Source of the DNA: a virus
Virus record (IMG/VR): IMGVR_UViG_3300021085_000290
Span: 1-20,099 of that record
Reading direction: 5' to 3' (one strand)
Length of the DNA stretch: 20,099 nt
Position numbers and translations under genes: made by a program. Every line of letters begins with the position of its first letter. The stretch's first letter is position 1. Positions 72 to 20,099 of this stretch are shown here, one piece after another. The notes under the pieces are model-generated. The model was not told the origin of the DNA, did no database searches, and worked only from the letters and a program-made list of their open reading frames with translations.

Positions 72-1529
72 ATGGAGACAAATATGTCAAACGAAAAACA
101 ATCTCCTGAAAGCAATTTCGATTTAGATGCTTTTGCAAAGAAAGTAGCTGCTGATACAGCTGCTGAAATCGCAATGAAGCAAGCTGAGTCAAAAGCTGCT
201 GAACAGAAGGCTGCAGAAGAAGCTGCTCAAAAAGCAACTGATGAAGCTGAAGTTCTAAAAGCTAACGAAAAAGCCGATCAGGAAAAAACTAAAACTATAG
301 TTGAAGCTGGATTAACAGGAGCCGAAAAGCTCATGAATGATGTTGAAGCTAGAGTTAATGATAACTATTCTAATTTAGAGTCAGTTGTTAAAAATCTAGA
401 ATCACAATTAGCTGAAAAATCAGAAGAAATCATGAATATCAGAGAGTCTAAAAGACATTTCGCTGATAGAAGTGGTACTGGTAACTGGAAAAAAGAATTC
501 GAATCAGATATTCTTGATGCAAAATTTGCTGGTCTAGCGACTGGTAAAGGATGGAACAATGATATGTCAAAATCTTTGATGGAAAAAGTAAATCAACATT
601 CAGGTGTTCAAGTTTCCTCAGGTGATTTCGAGCAAATCGTTTCAACTAATATTGAAAGAGATATTCAGAATGAGCTAGTTCTAGCACCTCTATTTAGAGA
701 GATTGCAATGAATTCTGCAAATATGATAATACCAATCTTACCAGATAGCGGTTACGCTGAATTTACTTCAGGGTCTGCTGTAGCAAATGACAACTTAGAT
801 ATGAGGTCTGCTTCTTATGGTGACGATGCAGGTGTTACTATGCAAGAAAGAATTCTTACAACTAAGAAACTTATTTCTCAGTCATTCTTAGGTAATGAAA
901 CTGAAGAAGATGCAATCTTACCGATTCTTCCTTTAATTAGAGAGTCTATGGTTAGATCACACGCTAGAGCAATTGAAAATGCTATTTTAGCTGGTGACGA
1001 TGCTGAGGGTGCTTTCGGTACTGGTGGAGCTTCTTTTGAAGGTTTACTACACTTAGCAAGAAACGATTCAGATTTTACTGCATCGACTACTGCTTTTGCT
1101 ACTGATACAGTTACAGCTTTGGATTTATTAGCTATGAGAAAAAATATGGGCAAATATGGTGTTAATCCATCAGAAGTTGTTTATATCGTTTCACAAAGAA
1201 CTTACTATGAACTACTAGAAGATCCTGAGTTCCAAGACGCACAACTTGTTGGCGACATGGCAACTAAGCTTTCTGGTGAAATTGGTCAAGTATTCGGTTC
1301 AAGAGTACTATTATGTGACGAGTTTGCTACACCAGCAGTTTCTAAGTTCGGTGCTATTGCTGTTAACCCAAGCAACTATGTATTACCTAGACTAAGAGGT
1401 GTTACAGTTGAGTCTGATTACGAAGTAATCAACCAAAGAAGAGTTCTTGTGGCTTCACAAAGAATCGGATTTACCGATCTTATTGATGGCGCAACTTCTA
1501 AGTGGGCTTACCAGTATAAAAACGCGTAA
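72..1529 (+). CDS. Major capsid protein, HK97 fold, with N-terminal scaffold-like coiled coil
   Basis: This is the shell subunit of the icosahedral head. Residues ~20-75 are a highly charged Ala/Glu/Lys-rich helix and ~100-126 a second predicted coiled coil, together matching the delta (scaffolding) domain that HK97-type capsid precursors carry and lose to a prohead protease. Residues ~175-485 look like the shell domain: a QIVSTNIERDIQ-type N-arm, an E-loop-like LTTKKLISQSFLGNETEED stretch, a long helix LIRESMVRSHARAIENAIL, and the VVYIVSQRTYYEL strand-helix usual in P-domains. At 485 residues it is longer than mature capsid proteins, as expected for a precursor. Two starts are possible: ATG 72 (GGAGG 11 nt upstream) and ATG 84 (GGAG at 74-77, 6 nt spacing, the better one). 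The frame is also open upstream to the window edge. A terminator hairpin follows. The family assignment is firm; the cleavage site is not visible by eye. Confidence 0.9.
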   Translation: METNMSNEKQSPESNFDLDAFAKKVAADTAAEIAMKQAESKAAEQKAAEEAAQKATDEAEVLKANEKADQEKTKTIVEAGLTGAEKLMNDVEARVNDNYSNLESVVKNLESQLAEKSEEIMNIRESKRHFADRSGTGNWKKEFESDILDAKFAGLATGKGWNNDMSKSLMEKVNQHSGVQVSSGDFEQIVSTNIERDIQNELVLAPLFREIAMNSANMIIPILPDSGYAEFTSGSAVANDNLDMRSASYGDDAGVTMQERILTTKKLISQSFLGNETEEDAILPILPLIRESMVRSHARAIENAILAGDDAEGAFGTGGASFEGLLHLARNDSDFTASTTAFATDTVTALDLLAMRKNMGKYGVNPSEVVYIVSQRTYYELLEDPEFQDAQLVGDMATKLSGEIGQVFGSRVLLCDEFATPAVSKFGAIAVNPSNYVLPRLRGVTVESDYEVINQRRVLVASQRIGFTDLIDGATSKWAYQYKNA

Positions 1530-9937: not shown

Positions 9938-10315
9938 ATGGCAATAGGATTCAACACAGGCGGAACTTTAGGAATTGTAGTACCAGACAAAGGACTTACA
10001 CTTTCAAATAAACCAAAGATACATTTATCGACTTTTGGCGATGGCTATGAGCACCGTATTGCAGACGGTATTAATACTTTAGTTCAATCTTTTAGCCTAA
10101 GTTTTACAACTAGACCAAAAGCAGAAATAGATGATATAGTAGATTTCTTTGAAAGCAAAGGAGCAATAACTGCATTTGACTATACTGTTTCTGACACTAA
10201 TTCTGGAGGAAATGAAAGAACAATCAAAGTAGTCTGTGACTCTTGGAACCAAACATGGGCATATAATAATTTTTATAGTTTAACAGCAAATTTTAGGAGA
10301 GTATACGAGTCGTGA
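9938..10315 (+). CDS. Minor tail protein M homologue
   Basis: This tail-tip protein of 125 residues sits below the tube in the lambda-type tip. The family signature is clear: IHLSTFGDGYEHRIADGINT near the start, then SFSLSFTTRPKAEIDDIVDF, and a strand-turn with FESKGAITAFDYTV matching the usual 'ff...gg..aF.w' pattern; it ends in a beta strand (YNNFYSLTANFRRVYES). Its length is typical of gpM (109 in lambda). The order tape measure, M, L, K, I, J is that of lambda. It begins 6 nt after the tape measure stop; AGGAGGG at 9907-9913 is about 24 nt upstream and too distant to be an ordinary ribosome site, so start efficiency is unclear. The stop overlaps the next start as GTGA. Confidence 0.88.
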   Translation: MAIGFNTGGTLGIVVPDKGLTLSNKPKIHLSTFGDGYEHRIADGINTLVQSFSLSFTTRPKAEIDDIVDFFESKGAITAFDYTVSDTNSGGNERTIKVVCDSWNQTWAYNNFYSLTANFRRVYES

Positions 10316-11526
10316 GTACAAACAGTTTAATAAATGATTTTCAAAAACAGGCAGTGGCTTCAGGCATTGTAGAGCTGTATGAGATAGAAAAAGCAGATGG
10401 AACATTTGCTTATATAACAAGAGGAGAAGATTCAGATGGAAGTAGTCTACAACTTTATGATTATACTTCTACTAGCACTCTTAGAACTTATGCACCCTAT
10501 CCTGTAGAGAGTTCTGGGTTTGAAATTAAAGTAACAGGAGCAATACCAAGACCTGTTATTAACTTTTCAAATGTAGGTAATAACTTTACTACTTTAATGG
10601 GTACTACAGATACAAACGCATTACTAGGTAAAAAAATTGTACGAAGATTAACATTAAAAAAATATTTAGCAGGAGAATCAGCAGATACTGGATCAGGCAA
10701 TCAATCTATAGAGTTTGATAGACAAGTATGGGTTATCTCTAAACTAATGAAAAAAGATGCAACAGCGTTAAGTTTTGAACTTAAAGCGCCTTTTGATTTA
10801 GAAGGGGTTAAGATACCTGCAAGACAGATAATATCAAACGCTTGCCCTTGGGAGTATACAGGAGCCTCCCCTTCTTTACCTGAAGCAGATAAATGCGGAG
10901 GGTGTACTTGGGATAAGGCAGGTTCTTTTAGAGCAAGATATAATACAAATGATACTAGCCAAAAAGTTTATGTAACACTTGATGATGAGTATATTTATGA
11001 TGGTAGCTTATCTTATACAGACTATACAGCAGCAACTTCAAGTACTGCATTTGCTGTTGATGATTTTATAAAAACAACAGGAGAAGCTGCAACTGAAATA
11101 ACTACAGCAGGAGGCTTCAACGCTATTACAAATTTAACTAGGTACTGGCAAGTACTTACTGCAGGAACAAAAACAGCTTTAGGTACTCCTTCAGAGTCTA
11201 ATAGTAACTTCGCAGTAGTAAGAGTATTTTCTTCTAGTTATAGTGCAAGTACTACATATAAAGCTTACACAGATGATAGACTAAATAGTATAGTTAAATC
11301 TGGAGACTTCTTATGGAAAACAAAGCAGCCCACTGTAGGTAACAGCCCAACATTTAGTGATTATTGGAGAAGAGCAGATGAGTGTGGCAAAAGACTAAAT
11401 TCTTGTAATAAAAGATTTGGGTTTGTACCAAAGACTTCAACAAGTACAACTTCTAGAGGCAGTGCTACTTTTGAGAATAGAGTTCTACCTTTTGGAGGTT
11501 TTCCAGGGTCAAAGAACTTTGAATAA
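10312..11526 (+). CDS. Minor tail protein L homologue with extra domain between its cysteine pairs
   Basis: gpL forms the trimeric ring joining the M ring to the J hub. Residues 1-175 match the family (INDFQKQAVASGIVELYEIE, GAIPRPVINFSNVG, FELKAPFDLEGVKIPARQI), and the C-terminus ends with the characteristic NRVLPFGGFPGS. Lambda gpL binds a [4Fe-4S] cluster through four cysteines. Here the candidates are C178 (NACPWEYTG), C195 and C198 (KCGGC), and C358 and C365 (DECGKRLNSC). In lambda the middle two are a few tens of residues apart; here about 160 residues separate them. The inserted part ends with a Y..W-type segment (TTYKAYTDDRL, FLWKTKQP, SPTFSDYW) resembling small carbohydrate-binding modules in phage tails, which is my inference. 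The start is GTG at 10312, overlapping the M stop by 4 nt. At 404 residues it is much longer than lambda gpL (232). Confidence 0.87.
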   Translation: MSTNSLINDFQKQAVASGIVELYEIEKADGTFAYITRGEDSDGSSLQLYDYTSTSTLRTYAPYPVESSGFEIKVTGAIPRPVINFSNVGNNFTTLMGTTDTNALLGKKIVRRLTLKKYLAGESADTGSGNQSIEFDRQVWVISKLMKKDATALSFELKAPFDLEGVKIPARQIISNACPWEYTGASPSLPEADKCGGCTWDKAGSFRARYNTNDTSQKVYVTLDDEYIYDGSLSYTDYTAATSSTAFAVDDFIKTTGEAATEITTAGGFNAITNLTRYWQVLTAGTKTALGTPSESNSNFAVVRVFSSSYSASTTYKAYTDDRLNSIVKSGDFLWKTKQPTVGNSPTFSDYWRRADECGKRLNSCNKRFGFVPKTSTSTTSRGSATFENRVLPFGGFPGSKNFE

Positions 11527-11842
11527 ATTTATAGAAGAAATCTTTTCTCATGCAGAAAAGGAAGCTCCACGCGAGATGTGCGGCTTAATAATAGAACAGA
11601 ATAATGAAGAAAAATGGATTCCTTGCGAAAACAAATTTTTAGGAGAAAATCAATTTGAAATTGACCCAAAAACTTTCGCAAAGTATCAACTAATTTCGAA
11701 AATAAAATATGTAGTCCATAGTCACTACATGCAAGATTGTCATCCAAGTGAGCATGACAAGAAAAACTGTAAGGTATTAGGTATTCCATACTTAATCGTA
11801 TCTTACCCTGATAGAGGAGTTAATATTTATGACCCACGTTAA
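11519..11842 (+). CDS. Tail assembly protein K homologue, JAMM/JAB metallopeptidase domain only
   Basis: This 107-residue protein shows the full zinc-peptidase JAMM motif: the glutamate in REMCGLI, then HSH followed seven residues later by SEHD (H-x-H-x7-S-x2-D). Lambda gpK carries this domain plus an NlpC/P60 cell-wall hydrolase domain; here the protein stops after the JAMM domain, so the second half is missing or encoded elsewhere. The chosen start is TTG at 11519, with AGGG at 11505-11508 ten nt upstream; it overlaps the end of gene L by 8 nt. An in-frame ATG at 11417 lies deep in L and would add 34 residues of frame-shadow sequence, while the next ATG inside REMCG would destroy the catalytic motif. 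The gene overlaps gene I by 14 nt. Its likely job is proteolytic maturation of a tip component, perhaps the ubiquitin-like part of I. Confidence 0.82.
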   Translation: MNKFIEEIFSHAEKEAPREMCGLIIEQNNEEKWIPCENKFLGENQFEIDPKTFAKYQLISKIKYVVHSHYMQDCHPSEHDKKNCKVLGIPYLIVSYPDRGVNIYDPR

Positions 11843-12650
11843 GTTAATGGGAGAAATGGGAGAAAAGTTCGGAGCGGAATGGAACATGGATGTTTCCAAT
11901 TTTCGTGATGTTTTTCGTCTTATTGATTGCCAAACAAATGGATTTAAACAGTACTTAACAACTTGTGCAGAAGAGGGAATAAACTTTACTATTCAAAACG
12001 GAGAAGACTTAGTAGATGGTACTCTCGATGCAATGATAGCCCCTGTAAAAGATACTGTAGTTATTACTCCAGTTGCTGCAGGTGCCGGAATGAAAGATAT
12101 TTTAAAAGTAGTATTTGGAGTTTTTCTACTGATGTATGGGCCGGGAATGGCAGACGGTTTATTTGGAGGAGCAGAGGCACAGGCTGCAAAAGACCTGGAT
12201 GCAGTCACAAGAGCAACAGGCATGGTAGAAGGAGTAAGAGTAGGAAGCTATGGAACTACACAAGCTCAGGTAGATGCAGCAGCTAAAGTAGAAAGAATAC
12301 AAAAAGCAAAAGCATTTACAACAAAAGCAATACAAGGAGTAGGAACTAATTTAGCACTAAGCGGTGTACAAGGATATTTAACTCCTGATACTCCCTCAAC
12401 TTCAGGGAAAAGTTACTTATTCAATGGCCCAGAAAACAACGTAAAAGAGGGAGTACCAGTGCCTTTACTATACGGACAGCTAATGGTTGGAGGCTCAGTA
12501 ATAAACTTCGGAGTAGAGGAAGAAGCTCTACCACCTTTTGCTTTACAAGGATATACAAGAATAACAGATGGCTCATCTTCATGGACTACAAGCGACGGGA
12601 GTTACGGCGGTGGTAGCGGAAAAGATAGAGGTATAACTCATGCATTTTAG
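11829..12650 (+). CDS. Tail assembly protein I homologue with ubiquitin-like N-terminus
   Basis: gpI is required to complete the lambda tail tip. Residues ~1-82 have the beta-grasp pattern described for this family (MTHVKLMGEMGEKFG, DVSNFRDVFRLIDCQTNGFK, ending in DTVVITPVAAGAG). A hydrophobic stretch follows at ~91-113 (ILKVVFGVFLLMYGPGMADG), then an Ala/Lys-rich linker. The C-terminal segment SYLFNGPENNVKEGVPVPLL, YGQLMVGGSVINFG is the conserved part found in I and J-associated proteins. Its 273 residues compare with 223 in lambda. GAGGAG at 11814-11819 lies 9 nt before the ATG. The 14-nt overlap with K points to coupled production of the JAMM peptidase and its possible substrate; both proteins are made in lambda but are not clearly part of the mature tail. 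Confidence 0.85.
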   Translation: MTHVKLMGEMGEKFGAEWNMDVSNFRDVFRLIDCQTNGFKQYLTTCAEEGINFTIQNGEDLVDGTLDAMIAPVKDTVVITPVAAGAGMKDILKVVFGVFLLMYGPGMADGLFGGAEAQAAKDLDAVTRATGMVEGVRVGSYGTTQAQVDAAAKVERIQKAKAFTTKAIQGVGTNLALSGVQGYLTPDTPSTSGKSYLFNGPENNVKEGVPVPLLYGQLMVGGSVINFGVEEEALPPFALQGYTRITDGSSSWTTSDGSYGGGSGKDRGITHAF

Positions 12651-12659
12651 GAGAAAATA

Positions 12660-15600
12660 ATGGGATATGGAAAAAGATTTGCTGATGAACTAGAAGCAGC
12701 TTCAAATAATAATGTTGGGGGCTCAAATGCAGTAGCAGGAACTTCTAGTACTATAGAAGGCTCAAAAAACATGCCTGAAGAAAATCAAACTGCAGTAATA
12801 TATGACGTTTTGTCTGAAGGCCCGATTGAAGGTTTGGTAGATGGAACAAATTCAATATTTTTAGATAAAACTCCTGTAACTATAGAAGACAAAAAATACC
12901 AACCTATAGTAATTGGGAAAGGTAATTTCACAGCAAGTACACTAACTATAGTAGATTCTACTAGTTCCAATCCTTTTGCTAATCTTTCTACAGAAGATGG
13001 TAAAAGATTTGTAAGAATTGCTAAAGGTAAAAAGTTAATTACAGGTAATGGAACTTCTACAGGAATTTCAGGTACTGAAGGCTCGAATATAATTACTTCA
13101 TCTACTGCTTTTTTCTCTGAAGATGACTTAGCAAGTGTAAATCCTACTTCAGGAACAGATGTTTTTATTGATACAGAGATACCTGATCCTTTTATAAGAA
13201 TAGAAGGAGCGGGGGCTAACTCTTCAGTAGAACTGGTAACTCCTATAGTTAGATTTATTAGTACAACTTCTGTAGAAATTGGACAACCTTTACCTAGAGA
13301 TATTACACATAAAACAGCAGCTATTGATAAGATAGGTACAATTGCTAGTTTTACTAATCCAAATACTGCAGTTATAACACAGTCAACCCCTTTAGGCACT
13401 GCTAAAGTAGATGCTACTAACGTAGAGATTCTTGTAAATACTCCTGCCGCAGTAAATATAGAAGATCCTATATATAATTTCCAAAACTTTTCATACTCAT
13501 TTATGAACGGGCATCCAGATCAGCCGTATTTAAAAGGTTTCAAAGACATAGGTAGCGCTAGTATAATTGAGAATAAAAATGTTGCGATAGAACAAACTCA
13601 AGGACTTCTTTCCAATAACAATAATACAATAACTGGAAAATGGAGTAGTAATACAGCGGCTGCTAGTGCACAAGCTGTAGTTGTTACAGATAATGCAATA
13701 TCAAATCCTAATGAAGTAGACAGCATAAAATTAACCTTTAAGTCTCCTACTATGATAGCGGCTAAATCAAGTAGTGGTGATGAGAAACCAGCAAACTGTG
13801 AACTAAGAATTTTCTTAGGGTATAAGAAAACAGGAGATAATGCATTCACACAAAAACTTATGTTTGGTCCTACTGACGAAGATTTAAGTTCAAGGGAAGA
13901 TAACAAACAGTCAAGACCTTGGGAAAACGCACACAATAGTGGTAGAATTAGAACAGAAACAAGAACACCTTTTGCAGAAAGCTTTACTATTGATTTAACT
14001 CCTTATAAGCCTTTATCAGATTACCAAATAACAATTCAAAGAGTAGACCCAGCTATCGGGAAAAACGGAGATTATAATCATACTGCTACTGTTACTTTAG
14101 ACACTGTTGAACATAGATTTACAGATAAATTATCATACCCTCATGCTGCATACTCGGCAGTACTTTTTGATGCGGAATCATTCTCAAAAATACCTTCTCG
14201 TTCTTATGAACTAAAAGGATTAAAAGTAAAAGTACCTACTAACTATTTTCCAAAAGGCGAAGGCGGAAGAACTCATGGAGAGTATGACAGAAATATAAGT
14301 TCTGGAGTAGACTCTGGAAGTTACCAAAACTGGGATGGAAATTTTAGAGGAGATTTATCTACTTATGCTGAGGGACATGTTAACCATGAACTAGTATGGA
14401 CAGATAATCCTGCTTGGATTTTCTATGACTTAGTAACAAATAAAAGATACGGAATAGGAAAATATATAGAAAACAGTCAAGTAGATAAATTCGAATTATA
14501 TAAGATCGCAAGATACTGTGACGAACTTGTAGCAGATGGAAAAGGTGGACTTGAGCCAAGATTTACTGCAAACGTATACATAAAAGAAGCAGCAGACGCA
14601 CTCAAAGTATTGAAAGATATTTCTCAAGTATTTAGGGGAATGTTATATTGGTTAGATGGTCAAATTCAATTTTCACAAAATAGGTATGAACAACCTATAT
14701 TTACTTTTTCAAAAGCAAACACTATAGGAGGATTTGCTTATACTTCACCTAGAGGACAGTTTAGATCAAATCAGATTAGAGTAACTTGGAATGACCCAGA
14801 CTCTATGTACAAACAAGCAGTAGAAATCGTAGAAGATACTAATAATATATTAGAAACTGGAAAAGTTGTACCTAAAACTATTGTTGCTTTCGGAGCAACT
14901 TCAAGAGGACAAGCACATAGATTTGGTAAGTGGAGTTTATTCACAGAGATACTAGAAGCCGAAGCTGTAGCATTTCAATCTTCTATCAATGCAGGATTCT
15001 TAAAACCTGGCAACGTAGTATTAATTCAAGATGCAGACAAAGATGTAATATCTAATTCCGGTAGATTGTCTTCTTCTAGTTCTGTTACTGGTATAAACCT
15101 AGATAGACCAATAAATCTTTCTAGCGGCAATACTTTTAAATTATCTATTATGTATCCACAAGGTGGAGCATACTTATCTAATACTAGTGCTATAATAAAT
15201 GATAGTACTACAGATGCTTCTGTAACAAATACTTACCAGAGAGGAGACTTAATAACTCATGCAAAAGTAGGGGGAACTGTAGTAGAACTAACAACAGATG
15301 AGCAAACTAATAATGCAGTAGATAGTAGCGGTGATGCTTTAGATTTAGTATGGAATCCTAATTCAAGAATTGAAACTCAAACTATATCTAGTACAGGGTC
15401 GTCAGTAAGTTCAGTAACAGTTAGTAGTGCCTTTACATCAGCTCCTGAGTCAGACTCAATGTGGGCAATCAGAGAGTACGATGCTGCAGGAGCCCTTGTA
15501 AACGGATCAGCACAACAATATGTAATTGTAGATATAAAAGAAGAACCAAATAAATTATATACTATATCCGCAGCTAAGTATGAGCCTTCTAAGTTCGACA

Positions 15601-18600
15601 TGGTTGACAGAGGATATATACTAGACGTAGGTGTAGACACTAATAAATTACCTACCTTTAGAGAAAGCCCACCAGCTCCAGAAACTTTAAGTTTAGAAGT
15701 TGTAAAATCTTTTAATGCAGGATTAAATGATTCTTCGAATATACTAGGTGCTACTAATCAAATAAGAATTAACTGGGGAAGAGTGTTAAATGATGACGGT
15801 ACTGAATACAAACATCTAAGTCATTTTGAAATAAAACATAATATTGATAGTTCTAGAGTTGATAAATTCAAAAAGCTAACAGTAGCAAAAACAGAAAACG
15901 TTTTAAGCGTAGACTTTGATGGGCCAAAAGAAATGATTGTTCAAGTTCAATCAGTTAATATTAATGGCGGAAAGTCTTCTATAGTACAAAGAAAGATTGA
16001 AGTTACAAATAGTCAAGTTAGTAATGGAACTACTGAAATATTTAAAGTACCTAGTGATGGAAAAATAGACAAACATATTCAATGCGGAGGATCTAACGTA
16101 TCTATAGATAGTGTAAACTATCAATTACAAAGCTCAGACGGTACAATATATACTAATCCTAGCAACGGAAACACAGCCTCTTACCAGCAAAGTTTTGTAG
16201 GTATGGCAGCAAATTCAGAAGCATACTTACTATTTGATGCGTCAGAAAGCGCAACTAGTGGAGATGTTTTAAAAGCTGTAGAGAATAAAATAGACTCAAC
16301 AGCACTATTACCTTTAGGAGTAAATAGTAGTAATGCGGCAGTAACTACACCTCTAGCTTTTGAATACTTAGCAGAAGTAGGAGCAGCGAACAATGGTATA
16401 ACAACCGAGACCGGAACTATAAGCGGAACAGTCGGTGATAACATTATTACTGGTTCTTCAACTGATTTTACTACTGAATTTGAAAACGGAGATATTATTG
16501 TAATTGCTCCAGCAGGAACAACACGTTTTTACAGTAAAATAAATTATATTGAAAGCAATACAAAACTACAAATTGCAACTCCTTTACCTAGAACTTACTC
16601 AGGAGTATCTGTAAGTAGCCTATCATTCAAATCAGATCCTATATCAGACGTTATTTTAGCAAAAGTATCTTATGACGGTTCAACTTACACAGTAGAAGAA
16701 AAGTATTCAGAAGGCACTGAAAGTTTAGGGTATTTTCATCATGAAAACACTTCAAATACAAATGCACTAAGTGCTGACGCTTTTAAAACTGAGTTTGGTA
16801 GATTCCCACAAGAAGGAGATATACTTATTGTTGTGAATACAGCTCCCACTCCTAAAGTAAGTAAGTCGTATAAATTCGCAAGTAATGCCTTTAGTGAAAT
16901 AGCTAACTTTATGACTGGAGATTTAGTAGTCGATGGTTCAATTTCTGGTACAAAAATAAATTCTGCTACTAAAGTTACAGCAGGTACTGGAAATAATGTA
17001 GGTGTGTTAGACGGAGCAGACTCTACATTTAGAATATATGCAGGACATGCTACTCCAGCAGATGCTCCTTTCAGAGTAACACAAGGCGGAGCTTTGACAG
17101 CAACAAGTGCTACTATAGAAGGAGCTATAGACGCTACAACTCTTAATGTTATTAATGCAAGTGTAGTAGGTTCTTTAACAGCAAGTGAACTTACAGCAGG
17201 TTCAGTAACAGTACAAAGTTTAAATCAAGCAGTATGGAATGAAATTGATACTAGAGTAGCAGGAACTTCGGCAAATGGTTTTTATGATAGTAAAAATTCA
17301 ACTACAGGATATTTAGGAGTTTCAAAAACTCTATCTTTGACAGGTTCTTCAAGCGCAGGTTATCAACATAATGGTGAAGATTTACACTTACGTTTCCAAC
17401 TAGTAGATTCATTTGGTCCAGCCCCAGCAGGATTTACAGGAAACGGGTTAAAAGTTACAGCACAATTTCAATACAGACTAGCAAGTTCAAGTACTTGGAT
17501 AAATGTAGGGTCTTCTTTGACGGAATCTTTAACTAAAACAGATTATTCTTCAGGTTCATTATATGATATAGACATGGATCACGATGTAGAAATATCTAGT
17601 TCTTTAACTTCTTCTTCTTACTACCATTTCCAAGTAGTTCTTACTCCTACTATAACAAACAATGCCTTTGTAGCATTTATAACTTATGGTCAGGGAGGAG
17701 CAAATGACACAAGCGGATCTCCTTTTGCTTTTGCGGCACAACAAGGAAGTACTTCTGTAGGTTCAGGATCTGGTACAATAACAGGTGTTACTGCTAATGA
17801 TGGTTTAAGTGGGGGCGGTACAACAGGTACTGTTAGTTTAGCAGTTGATAGCACAGTTGTAAGAACAACAGGAACACAAACAATTGCGGGTGCAAAAACT
17901 TTCTCAGATAATATAATATTGTCTGGAAATCTTGATGTACAGGGAACTACTACTACATTAAACGCACAAGACTTAAATGTAACAGATAAAAGTATTGTTT
18001 TAAATTATCATGCAAGTAATGACACTTCTGGAACAGCAAATAATGCAGGTATAATTATTCAAGACGCAGTAAATTCTAGTACTGATGCTACTATTTTATG
18101 GGACGCAACTAACGATAACTTTAACTTTTCACACAAAATAAGATTAGATGACAATATACAAGCACAGTTTGGTAATGGCGCAGATTTACAGATTTATCAT
18201 ACAGGTAGTACATCTTTTATAGCAAATGGTGGAAATGGTAGTTTAAGACTTACTAATGGTACTGGAAATATTGAGTTAAGAGCATCAACTGTAGCATTGC
18301 AAGACAACTCAGCATATAACTATTTAAGAACAGAAGATTTAGGTAATGGTGGTCGTGTAAGAATTTATCATGAAGCTGTTGAGGTTATGAAAACTGAGTC
18401 AACAGGAATAGACATAACAGGAAGAGCAACTGCTGATGGATTGACAAGTGAAGGAACTTTAGGAAATTGGGAAATAAGTAATGGTGGTAACGTACAAACT
18501 TTTTCAAGAGCTGGTGCTAATTATATAAGAGCAAGTGATGCAGCAGGTATTTTAAGATTTGATACAGGTGGCACAACCATTCGTCAAAAAATATCCAACA

Positions 18601-20099
18601 ACGGAGACATCTCCTTCTATGATGATACAGGCACAAATCAAAGTTTCTTCTGGGATGCAAGTGCTGAGTCACTTTGTTTAGGCAATACAAATGCAAGTGC
18701 ATCATTAGATATAAGAAAAGATAGTGGGTTTGCACTTAGAGCAGAAAACGGAAGTGGACATTACTTTAGAGTTGCCGCAGGAGGTAATACTGAAATAGGT
18801 GGTACTTTAGATGTATCAGGAATAGTTACTGCTGATGGATTGACTGTTAATTCAGGAATTACTAACCAAGTTGCAACTTTTTCAAGTACAGATGCAACTG
18901 CATTTATAAAAGTAGCTGATAACAGCACTACAGCTACTACACATGGTTATGGTGCAAATGGTAATGACTTGAGTTTATACGCTAATGATTCTGAGAGAGT
19001 CAGAATATTAAGTACAGGAGATGTAAATTTTAAAACTGGTGGTTTAAAAATAAATGACACAACTGTTATAGATAGTTCAAAAAATCTATTAAACCTTGAA
19101 TCTATAAAATTATCTGATAACAAAGAATTATTATTGGGTACTAGCTCAGATGTAAGATTCTTACATAATGGAACAGACACTCATATTTTAAATAATACTG
19201 GTGATTTATTTATAAGTAACTTTGCAGATGATAAAGACATTGTATTTAGAAGTGATGATGGTAGTGGTGGTGTAGCAGAATATTTTAGGCTAGATGGAGG
19301 TAATGGTTATCTTATAACTAGCAAACATAATCAACATTTAGACAATGTTAAGTCTATGTATGGTGGCTCTAATGATTTACAAATCTACCATGATGGTAGT
19401 CATAGCTTTATTAGAGATGGCGGAACTGGTCATTTAAAAATACAAGCTACAAACCTTAAGTTACAAGATGAAAGTGGCAACAACTATATAGACATGATTG
19501 ATGGTAGTTATGTTCGCCTAATGCATAACGCAAATACCAAGCTAGAAACAACCTTAACAGGCATAGACGTAACAGGAACAGTTACAAGTGATGGTTTGAC
19601 TGTTGATGGTACAGCACAAATAAATGGCACAAGTGCAGGACAATTAACTTTAGATGCTACAGGTCAATATAATCAAATAACTTTTGAGCAAAACAGTGGT
19701 AATAATTCAGGTGGAGATATAGTTTATGACCATACAAATGACCAATTGTGGTTGCGTTCACTTGCTGTAGGTAGCGTACATTTAAAAACAGGTACAACTG
19801 CAGGTAATACAGTAGATAGACTAAAGGTAGCATCTAACGGAGACATCAGCTTCTACGAAGACACTGGAACAACTCAAGGTTTGTTTTGGGATGCTAGTGC
19901 TGAGTCACTTTGTTTAGGCAATACAAATGCAAGTGCATCATTAGATATAAGAAAAGATAGTGGGTTTGCACTTAGGGCAGAAAATAACTTAGGACATTAT
20001 TTCAGAGTTGCCGCAGGAGGTAATACTGAAATAGGTGGTACTTTAGATGTATCAGGAACAATATCTAGTGGAAATGTTACAGCAGGTAGTAGTGGTAAT
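12660..20099 (+). CDS. Tail tip J homologue (host specificity hub) fused to a long repetitive tail fibre; 3' end outside window
   Basis: I read this frame codon by codon from ATG 12660 and found no stop through 20099: 2480 codons and still open. GGAG at 12650-12653 lies 6 nt before the ATG. J hallmarks are VIYDVLSEGPIEGLV (about residues 47-59, L51 at 12810), TDNPAWIFYDLVTNKRYGIG (~581-600), ARYCDELVADGKGGLEPRF (~617-635) and FRGMLYWLDGQI (~658). Residues ~1004-1117 look like a fibronectin type III domain (PPAPETLSLEV to VNINGGKSSI). A small module at ~1253-1319 (GTISGTVGDNIITG...) and a shaft with ISGTKINSATKV at ~1427 follow. From ~1700 the sequence is fibre-like: GVTANDGLSGGGTTGTVSLA, NLDVQGTTTTLNAQDLNVTD, LQIYH, GIDITGRATADGLT. 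The hub would anchor to L and close the tube; the fibre would recognise the receptor. Lambda J has 1132 residues, so this is at least twice as long. Confidence 0.92.
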   Translation, partial: MGYGKRFADELEAASNNNVGGSNAVAGTSSTIEGSKNMPEENQTAVIYDVLSEGPIEGLVDGTNSIFLDKTPVTIEDKKYQPIVIGKGNFTASTLTIVDSTSSNPFANLSTEDGKRFVRIAKGKKLITGNGTSTGISGTEGSNIITSSTAFFSEDDLASVNPTSGTDVFIDTEIPDPFIRIEGAGANSSVELVTPIVRFISTTSVEIGQPLPRDITHKTAAIDKIGTIASFTNPNTAVITQSTPLGTAKVDATNVEILVNTPAAVNIEDPIYNFQNFSYSFMNGHPDQPYLKGFKDIGSASIIENKNVAIEQTQGLLSNNNNTITGKWSSNTAAASAQAVVVTDNAISNPNEVDSIKLTFKSPTMIAAKSSSGDEKPANCELRIFLGYKKTGDNAFTQKLMFGPTDEDLSSREDNKQSRPWENAHNSGRIRTETRTPFAESFTIDLTPYKPLSDYQITIQRVDPAIGKNGDYNHTATVTLDTVEHRFTDKLSYPHAAYSAVLFDAESFSKIPSRSYELKGLKVKVPTNYFPKGEGGRTHGEYDRNISSGVDSGSYQNWDGNFRGDLSTYAEGHVNHELVWTDNPAWIFYDLVTNKRYGIGKYIENSQVDKFELYKIARYCDELVADGKGGLEPRFTANVYIKEAADALKVLKDISQVFRGMLYWLDGQIQFSQNRYEQPIFTFSKANTIGGFAYTSPRGQFRSNQIRVTWNDPDSMYKQAVEIVEDTNNILETGKVVPKTIVAFGATSRGQAHRFGKWSLFTEILEAEAVAFQSSINAGFLKPGNVVLIQDADKDVISNSGRLSSSSSVTGINLDRPINLSSGNTFKLSIMYPQGGAYLSNTSAIINDSTTDASVTNTYQRGDLITHAKVGGTVVELTTDEQTNNAVDSSGDALDLVWNPNSRIETQTISSTGSSVSSVTVSSAFTSAPESDSMWAIREYDAAGALVNGSAQQYVIVDIKEEPNKLYTISAAKYEPSKFDMVDRGYILDVGVDTNKLPTFRESPPAPETLSLEVVKSFNAGLNDSSNILGATNQIRINWGRVLNDDGTEYKHLSHFEIKHNIDSSRVDKFKKLTVAKTENVLSVDFDGPKEMIVQVQSVNINGGKSSIVQRKIEVTNSQVSNGTTEIFKVPSDGKIDKHIQCGGSNVSIDSVNYQLQSSDGTIYTNPSNGNTASYQQSFVGMAANSEAYLLFDASESATSGDVLKAVENKIDSTALLPLGVNSSNAAVTTPLAFEYLAEVGAANNGITTETGTISGTVGDNIITGSSTDFTTEFENGDIIVIAPAGTTRFYSKINYIESNTKLQIATPLPRTYSGVSVSSLSFKSDPISDVILAKVSYDGSTYTVEEKYSEGTESLGYFHHENTSNTNALSADAFKTEFGRFPQEGDILIVVNTAPTPKVSKSYKFASNAFSEIANFMTGDLVVDGSISGTKINSATKVTAGTGNNVGVLDGADSTFRIYAGHATPADAPFRVTQGGALTATSATIEGAIDATTLNVINASVVGSLTASELTAGSVTVQSLNQAVWNEIDTRVAGTSANGFYDSKNSTTGYLGVSKTLSLTGSSSAGYQHNGEDLHLRFQLVDSFGPAPAGFTGNGLKVTAQFQYRLASSSTWINVGSSLTESLTKTDYSSGSLYDIDMDHDVEISSSLTSSSYYHFQVVLTPTITNNAFVAFITYGQGGANDTSGSPFAFAAQQGSTSVGSGSGTITGVTANDGLSGGGTTGTVSLAVDSTVVRTTGTQTIAGAKTFSDNIILSGNLDVQGTTTTLNAQDLNVTDKSIVLNYHASNDTSGTANNAGIIIQDAVNSSTDATILWDATNDNFNFSHKIRLDDNIQAQFGNGADLQIYHTGSTSFIANGGNGSLRLTNGTGNIELRASTVALQDNSAYNYLRTEDLGNGGRVRIYHEAVEVMKTESTGIDITGRATADGLTSEGTLGNWEISNGGNVQTFSRAGANYIRASDAAGILRFDTGGTTIRQKISNNGDISFYDDTGTNQSFFWDASAESLCLGNTNASASLDIRKDSGFALRAENGSGHYFRVAAGGNTEIGGTLDVSGIVTADGLTVNSGITNQVATFSSTDATAFIKVADNSTTATTHGYGANGNDLSLYANDSERVRILSTGDVNFKTGGLKINDTTVIDSSKNLLNLESIKLSDNKELLLGTSSDVRFLHNGTDTHILNNTGDLFISNFADDKDIVFRSDDGSGGVAEYFRLDGGNGYLITSKHNQHLDNVKSMYGGSNDLQIYHDGSHSFIRDGGTGHLKIQATNLKLQDESGNNYIDMIDGSYVRLMHNANTKLETTLTGIDVTGTVTSDGLTVDGTAQINGTSAGQLTLDATGQYNQITFEQNSGNNSGGDIVYDHTNDQLWLRSLAVGSVHLKTGTTAGNTVDRLKVASNGDISFYEDTGTTQGLFWDASAESLCLGNTNASASLDIRKDSGFALRAENNLGHYFRVAAGGNTEIGGTLDVSGTISSGNVTAGSSGN
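18582..18822 (+). repeat. Fibre repeat, copy 1
   Basis: This is the first copy of an ~80-codon block (NGDISFYDDTGTN, then WDASAESLCLGNTNASASL, DIRKDSGFALRAEN, HYFRVAAGGNTEIGGTLDVS). It matches copy 2 at an offset of 1236 bases (412 codons). Bases 18660-18739 (80) and 18768-18822 (55) are identical to copy 2, including third codon positions, which points to recent duplication or gene conversion. Confidence 0.9.
19818..20058 (+). repeat. Fibre repeat, copy 2
   Basis: This is the second copy of the same block, with NGDISFYEDTGTT in place of NGDISFYDDTGTN, and ENNLGHYF in place of ENGSGHYF. Identity drops outside the block at both ends. The preceding segment also has a related partner: LQIYHDG at 19377 corresponds to LQIYHTG at 18186, offset 1191 bases, so the duplicated unit is about 400 codons with a shift of 15 codons inside it. 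Confidence 0.9.

What the first reader, a model, noticed from the sequence alone, without database searches (positions are those of the whole stretch)
11519..12650. Overlapping JAMM peptidase and ubiquitin-like protein genes, with the peptidase lacking its NlpC/P60 half
Comparative work on prokaryotic ubiquitin-like systems linked phage K (JAB/JAMM) and I (ubiquitin-like fold). Here the K protein is reduced to the peptidase and the two genes overlap by 14 nt, a minimal peptidase-substrate pair. A candidate cleavage region is the AAGAG stretch at I residues 83-87, just after the beta-grasp part. Loss of NlpC/P60 suggests wall hydrolysis is done by another protein.
Basis: partly seen in the sequence, partly recalled or inferred. 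Interest (0 to 1): 0.55.

Follow-up and report, generated by a model that had tools for sequence, protein, structure and literature searches.

The report
Stand-alone JAMM peptidase beside phage ubiquitin-like protein
This phage carries a stripped-down version of a known tail-building pair, a small ubiquitin-protease-like enzyme next to the protein whose ubiquitin-like cap it probably cuts off, and the stripped-down enzyme recurs in many environmental phage sequences.

Summary
K (TTG 11519-11842, 107 aa) is a complete JAMM/JAB peptidase with all catalytic residues and no NlpC/P60 part; it overlaps I (11829-12650, 273 aa) by 14 nt. I residues 1-86 model as a MoaD/SAMP1-type beta-grasp. G85, just after its last strand, is present in all 388 of 392 TAPI copies that align there. 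The C-terminal part matches the plug half of lambda gpI. That K cuts I is not a new idea: Iyer et al. 2006 predicted it, and a 2026 meeting report says the Davidson laboratory showed lambda gpK removing the gpI ubiquitin-like domain during tail-tip assembly. Most likely this pair does the same, at or next to G85. The difference is the enzyme: 178 of 390 sources examined, all IMG/VR contigs, have JAB alone, mostly in one supported clade; all 17 named phages opened have a longer K. So JAB probably suffices here and NlpC/P60 is dispensable. New variant of a known kind; cleavage was not tested.

The parts
11519..11842 (+). gene K, JAB/JAMM peptidase alone, 107 aa, TTG start, overlapping the end of L by 8 nt
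   Evidence: AlphaFold2 model pLDDT 91.5; best PDB matches Pyrococcus JAMM1, alone and with SAMP2
11573..11575 (+). K E19, glutamate of the JAMM motif
   Evidence: E in 258 of 260 distinct JAB domains, the other 2 gapped there; its catalytic role is recalled family knowledge
11717..11725 (+). K H67-S68-H69, the HxH zinc ligands
   Evidence: H67 and H69 in 260 of 260 distinct JAB domains; ligand role recalled
11747..11758 (+). K S77-E-H-D80, rest of HxHx7SxxD
   Evidence: D80 in 260 of 260, S77 in 256 of 260
11813..11819 (+). AGAGGAG, Shine-Dalgarno-like site 9 nt before the I start codon, inside K
   Evidence: sequence; 43 of 59 distinct gene pairs have an SD-like 4-mer before I
11829..12650 (+). 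gene I, tail tip assembly protein (TAPI), 273 aa
11829..12083 (+). I residues 1-85, ubiquitin-like beta-grasp domain ending in G85
   Evidence: model; MoaD/SAMP1/Urm1 matches; G85
12075..12089 (+). AAGAG, I residues 83-87, predicted cleavage region (at or next to G85)
   Evidence: G85 in 388 of 392 TAPI copies, the other 4 gapped there
12090..12383 (+). I residues 88-185, fast-evolving segment predicted as two long helices
   Evidence: mean pairwise identity 0.30 over residues 86-185
12384..12524 (+). I residues 186-232, plug region homologous to the C-terminal part of lambda gpI
   Evidence: sequence matches to PDB chains 25vf_9 and 8iyk_I; low confidence in the model
12525..12647 (+). I residues 233-273, Gly/Ser-rich low-confidence tail
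10312..11526 (+). gene L, minor tail protein L (404 aa)
   Evidence: Phage_tail_L E 1.1e-25
12660..20099 (+). gene J, central tail fibre/hub, open at the end of the record
   Evidence: phrog_31 E 7.4e-120; Phage-tail_3 E 2.8e-19

Best explanation
K is a small JAMM-type metalloprotease that removes the ubiquitin-like domain (residues 1-85) from the tail-tip plug protein I by cutting at or next to G85. As reported for lambda, the cut probably happens after I has joined the tip and serves as a checkpoint for ordered assembly; the C-terminal part of I stays as the plug held by J. Here the JAB domain does this alone, so the NlpC/P60 half of lambda-type K is not needed for it. Shown here: both genes, the intact active site, the beta-grasp model, the conserved glycine, the conserved gene pair, the plug homology. 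Shown elsewhere, known to me from a meeting report only: cleavage in lambda. Inferred: cleavage in this phage, the exact bond, the timing, and the absence of K from the virion.
For: All five JAMM residues present in 254 of 260 distinct JAB domains; of the other six, two are truncated, three have T for S77 and one has G. K model matches JAMM1 alone and with ubiquitin-like SAMP2; NCBIfam desampylase matched at E 1.8e-7, 31 bits, well below its 130-bit cut-off. I 1-86 matches MoaD-type, SAMP1 and Urm1 chains at Z 7-9, and several alignments (2l52, 1fm0_D, 2ax5, 2q5w_D, 3rpf_C) end at I residue 86 and at the chain's last residue. G85 in all 388 TAPI copies that align there, one of 8 invariant columns among 73 sequences. 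JAB and TAPI occur together in 357 of 390 sources, which were however fetched with K or I queries. [quoted passage not shown] Lambda gpI is resolved from residue 101 in one structure and modelled from 135 in another (passages), and its aligned glycine is G96. In four TAPI-J fusion ORFs (L157, L171, L177, L257) the ubiquitin-like part is at the N-terminus, as a removable cap would be, and each keeps the glycine. I starts with ATG in 59 of 59 distinct JAB-only gene pairs, K in 20 of 59 (24 GTG, 14 TTG, 1 unassigned), which would fit an enzyme made in smaller amounts.
Against: No cleavage was or could be observed here. Unresolved lambda residues may be flexible rather than removed: the 2024 authors describe the N-terminal domain as unseen and speculate that it might be the wall-cleaving enzyme (passages). 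In the distance analysis the ubiquitin-like part tracked K no better than the plug did (partial r 0.24 and 0.19, both bootstrap ranges including zero) and tracked the first half of L at least as well (0.39). 14 of 390 sources have a TAPI with room upstream but no JAB, and those TAPIs keep the glycine, so the glycine persists without an adjacent JAB. The lambda result is a meeting summary; searches listed no full paper.
Confidence: 0.8

Rival explanations
1. The ubiquitin-like domain stays on I as a docking part, chaperone or infection factor, and K is only a binding partner; no cut is made.
For: Lambda structures do not prove removal; the 2024 authors call the N-terminal domain unseen and speculate that it might cleave the cell wall (passages).
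Against: The catalytic residues are almost fully conserved in JAB-only and JAB+NlpC proteins alike; gpK was not found in lambda virions; cleavage is reported for lambda; the domain models as a MoaD/SAMP1-type beta-grasp, not as a hydrolase.
Confidence: 0.1
2. K is mainly a counter-defence enzyme that strips host ubiquitin-like modifiers which bacterial conjugation systems attach to the central tail fibre; its pairing with I is secondary.
For: A defence system that attaches ubiquitin-like proteins to the tail fibre is described in a passage of PMC11364771; the original paper is not held. K is encoded two genes before J.
Against: JAB and a phage-encoded ubiquitin-like domain occur together in 357 of 390 sources (selection noted) and the glycine is conserved, which defence against sporadic host systems would not explain.
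Confidence: 0.06
3. Loss of NlpC/P60 is a recent degeneration or an assembly artefact of this record.
For: Iyer et al. thought NlpC-only variants might be degenerate versions typical of prophages (passages).
Against: 178 JAB-only sources (120 distinct K ORFs), 1.70 Mb read in six frames, hold no NlpC-type hit at E 0.01; 20 of 24 thinned JAB-only rows form one clade with SH-aLRT 96.
Confidence: 0.01

Closest known systems
Phage lambda gpK and gpI (TAPK/TAPI)
   Same: Gene order L-K-I-J, overlapping K and I, JAMM motif, N-terminal ubiquitin-like domain with the conserved glycine, C-terminal plug
   Different: K here has no NlpC/P60 domain (107 aa; annotated K is 199-281 aa in the 17 named phages opened); I is 273 aa against 223, with a longer helical middle part and a Gly/Ser-rich tail
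PHROG_2635 'tail protein' (135-position model)
   Same: Same JAB domain, E 1.1e-20, profile about as long as a JAB-only protein; the best PHROG match is the longer phrog_30, E 5e-26
   Different: No function named; I did not inspect its members
Archaeal desampylase / JAMM1 with SAMP ubiquitin-like proteins
   Same: Fold and active site of K; fold of I 1-86
   Different: Those act on a separate ubiquitin-like modifier (recalled); here the ubiquitin-like domain is the N-terminal part of one polypeptide
NlpC-only TAPK and JAB-TAPI fusion of Iyer et al. 2006
   Same: Other domain variants of the same gene cluster (passages)
   Different: A separate JAB-only TAPK is not described in the passages I read

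Membership tests
JAMM/MPN+ metalloprotease | E ... HxHx7SxxD active-site motif | tested here: met
   E19, H67, H69, S77, D80
JAMM/MPN+ metalloprotease | JAMM fold | tested here: met
   model pLDDT 91.5; Foldseek 5ld9_B TMq 0.81, E 1.7e-7
JAMM/MPN+ metalloprotease | zinc-dependent peptidase activity | not testable with these tools
   needs protein
Lambda gpK-type TAPK | JAB domain, gene between L and I | tested here: met
Lambda gpK-type TAPK | C-terminal NlpC/P60 domain | tested here: not met
   absent in K and in the window and in the 178 JAB-only sources
TAPI (lambda gpI) | N-terminal ubiquitin-like beta-grasp | tested here: met
TAPI (lambda gpI) | conserved glycine after the last strand | tested here: met
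   G85; last strand 76-83
TAPI (lambda gpI) | C-terminal plug domain | tested here: met
   by sequence: matches to 25vf_9 and 8iyk_I; the structure of this part was not modelled well
TAPI (lambda gpI) | recognised by a Pfam or NCBIfam TAPI model | tested here: inconclusive
   no such match in Pfam at E 1 or NCBIfam at E 0.1, but PHROG_32 E 4.7e-32
K-processed TAPI pair | K cuts the ubiquitin-like domain off I | not testable with these tools
   reported for lambda only

The most novel reading that the evidence does not exclude
The JAB-only lineage carries a stand-alone enzyme that, beyond trimming I, also removes ubiquitin-like marks put on the tail fibre by host defence, with the released I cap (ending in glycine) competing with the host modifier.
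Probability: 0.05. Interest if true: 0.8.

Novelty: new variant of a known kind. Interest (0 to 1): 0.35.

Why it matters
It is a natural separation of function. In lambda-type K two peptidase domains are fused and their roles are hard to tell apart; a large lineage that keeps only JAB indicates that JAB is the part tied to the ubiquitin-like domain of I and that NlpC/P60 can be lost. The 107-aa enzyme and its 85-residue cap are also a convenient minimal system for the biochemistry of a viral ubiquitin-like maturation step.

Tried and rejected
Co-variation test. Identity matrices from 43 thinned loci (703 usable pairs) gave partial r -0.04 between the two halves of I and 0.59 between plug and J hub. 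With split controls on 30 loci the halves of I stayed uncoupled (-0.12, bootstrap -0.31 to 0.27) and the plug stayed coupled to the second half of the J hub (0.36, 0.16 to 0.58). I use it only as a weak hint that plug and J form one unit.

TAPI without JAB as a test of the glycine. 28 of 390 sources had no JAB. In 14 the TAPI ORF begins within about 100 nt of the end of the fetched stretch, so K has no room. The other 14: eight solitary TAPIs (L199, L224, L229, L241, L251, L260, L264, L330), two second copies (L250, L254), TAPI with J but no K found (L222, L239), TAPI with M, L and J but no K found (L253), and one with only an NlpC piece (L326). All 14 keep the glycine. Too few and too mixed to serve as a test.

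Replacement wall hydrolase. NLPC_P60 in 15 longer records of JAB-only phages: 0 of 15. Peptidase_M23, SLT, Peptidase_M15_4 and Amidase_2: 0 of 16 each. Pfam on one tape measure protein and nine genes downstream of J from two relatives: none muralytic. These records may be fragments and other families were not tried, so absence is not shown.

Foldseek on the whole I model gave nothing at E 0.001; only the VIA second look picked out the N-terminal domain. Its matches to residues 84-192 are helical and of the kind its own note calls common; I draw nothing from them. It also warns that Z under 8 may be a common arrangement; I rely on many chains of one fold rather than on one score.

Natural K-I fusion for a docking model: none among the fetched loci.

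Full report
The window is the whole held record, a 20,099-base IMG/VR fragment with 35.6% G+C. On the + strand it carries a major capsid protein, head-tail genes, major tail protein, tail assembly chaperones, tape measure protein, M, L, K, I and J; J runs off the end.

Observation. K starts at TTG 11519, eight bases inside the end of L, and stops at 11842; I starts at ATG 11829. K is 107 aa, Prok-JAB at E 3.4e-11, without an NlpC/P60 match. HSH is K 67-69 and AAGAG is I 83-87. Among 101 sources with a complete K ORF, all fetched as relatives of the window's K or I except lambda, 82 have the same 14-nt overlap, and 98 of the 100 without lambda have a K of JAB-only length; L105 and L106 have NlpC. 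An AGAGGAG site lies 9 nt before the I start. The finding is real and conserved.

K. The model (pLDDT 91.5) matches Pyrococcus JAMM1, alone and bound to ubiquitin-like SAMP2, then AfJAMM, Rpn11 and other JAMM proteins. Of 260 distinct JAB domains from the fetched loci, 254 have all five JAMM residues; two are truncated, three have T and one has G in place of S77. This is the pattern of an active enzyme.

I. The model is confident for residues 1-80 (block means 78-96) and weak at 81-90, at 131-140 and after about 180. Strand and helix order fit a beta-grasp. In VIA-align, residues 1-86 match TA0895 (Z 8.7, rmsd 2.7, 81 aligned), a MoaD-related protein (Z 8.4), SAMP1 (Z 8.1) and Urm1 (Z 7.8), many chains of one fold; Foldseek alone gave no hit at E 0.001. 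G85 follows the last strand (76-83). It is present in 388 of 392 TAPI copies; the other 4 are gapped there. Position 87 is G in 142 of 174 TAPIs beside JAB-only K, and K in 177 of 188 beside JAB+NlpC, which may only reflect ancestry. The C-terminal part matches lambda gpI and two further tail assembly proteins in the PDB, 25vf_9 and 9l9p_A, whose structures I did not inspect.

What is known. Iyer et al. 2006 (PMC1779556, passages) described the TAPI ubiquitin-like domain, its conserved glycine and its pairing with TAPK (JAB plus NlpC/P60), and proposed that JAB releases the domain at the glycine; they also noted NlpC-only TAPK and one JAB-TAPI fusion. One lambda structure models gpI from residue 135 on, and its authors did not find gpK by mass spectrometry (PMC10721106, passages). 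Another resolves gpI from residue 101 on in the closed state (PMC11101478, passages). [quoted passage not shown] Searches listed no full paper on it. The mechanism is therefore known, at least by report, for lambda, and this window holds a relative.

What is different. Across 389 loci and the window (some loci re-fetch one contig), 184 have JAB and NlpC in one ORF, 178 JAB alone, 4 NlpC only and 24 neither. The queries shaped these shares: window-type queries fetched mostly JAB-only loci, lambda-type queries none. All 178 JAB-only sources are IMG/VR contigs, with 120 distinct K ORFs; none lies in the 80 named genome loci, in the 80 loci or in the phage records fetched up. Six-frame search of the 178 (1.70 Mb) found no NlpC-type ORF at E 0.01. 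On a tree of 84 thinned JAB domains the label needs three changes, though well-supported branches force only one; 20 of 24 JAB-only rows form one clade (SH-aLRT 96) and four sit elsewhere (only 104 columns, so many forks are unsure). All 17 named phages whose K region I opened have an annotated K of 199-281 aa; lambda's 199 is the shortest, and its reference frame is broken upstream. Searches listed no paper that I recognised as describing a separate JAB-only TAPK; of those listed I read passages of PMC1779556, PMC10196503 and PMC7824862 only. PHROG_2635 is a JAB-sized 'tail protein' family, so such proteins are already in databases.

How it likely works. I is made with an N-terminal ubiquitin-like cap. 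K, which starts with ATG in 20 of 59 distinct genes against 59 of 59 for I (starts assigned as the nearest start codon to the aligned start), cuts at or next to G85 once I sits in the tip, and the plug part remains with J. In four ORFs in which TAPI is fused to J (J matches at E 1e-55 or better) the cap is at the N-terminus and the glycine is kept. The cut in this phage is inferred.

NLPC_P60 was sought in 15 longer records and four other peptidoglycan-hydrolase families in 16, without a match, and ten proteins of two relatives had no such domain. This neither shows nor excludes a replacement. Since gpK was not found in lambda virions, none is required.

Evidence against. Distance analysis did not link the cap to K specifically. 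Fourteen sources have TAPI with room upstream but no JAB, and keep the glycine.

Noticed in passing
L250 and L254 (Achromobacter); L199, L224, L229, L241, L251, L260, L264, L330: Second or solitary TAPI genes. In L250 and L254 a further TAPI lies about 600 nt downstream of J; the others have no match to phi80 M, L, K or the J N-terminal part in the fetched stretch. A decoy that disturbs tail assembly of incoming phages is one possibility.
   Followed up: partly
L239, L222, L253: TAPI next to J (L253 also M and L) with no K found. In L222 the TAPI forms the last 190 residues of a 656-aa ORF whose first 465 residues were not identified.
   Followed up: no
L152:2744-4348: Two TAPI ORFs in tandem after one JAB-only K.
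   Followed up: no
L157, L171, L177, L257: TAPI fused to J in one ORF, with JAB+NlpC K upstream.
   Followed up: partly
window 11519-12650: phrog_35166 (322 positions, unknown function) matches K at positions 2-96 and, weakly, the C-terminal part of I at 277-315, so it may be a natural K-I fusion.
   Followed up: no
L109 (lambda NC_001416), K region: The match is one base longer in 21 of the 25 listed records than in the lambda reference, whose JAB part lies in two frames, so the annotated 199-aa K lacks the JAB N-terminal part.
   Followed up: partly
window 72-1529: The capsid protein is closest, at 31-33% identity, to 112-118 kb Vibrio and Aeromonas phages (T5-like as I recall), whereas the tail tip is lambda-like: a mosaic of head and tail modules.
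   Followed up: no
window 18702 and 19938 (J residues 2015 and 2427): J holds repeated stretches, for instance the same 16-residue stretch twice, and a BppL_N match at residues 1729-1749.
   Followed up: no
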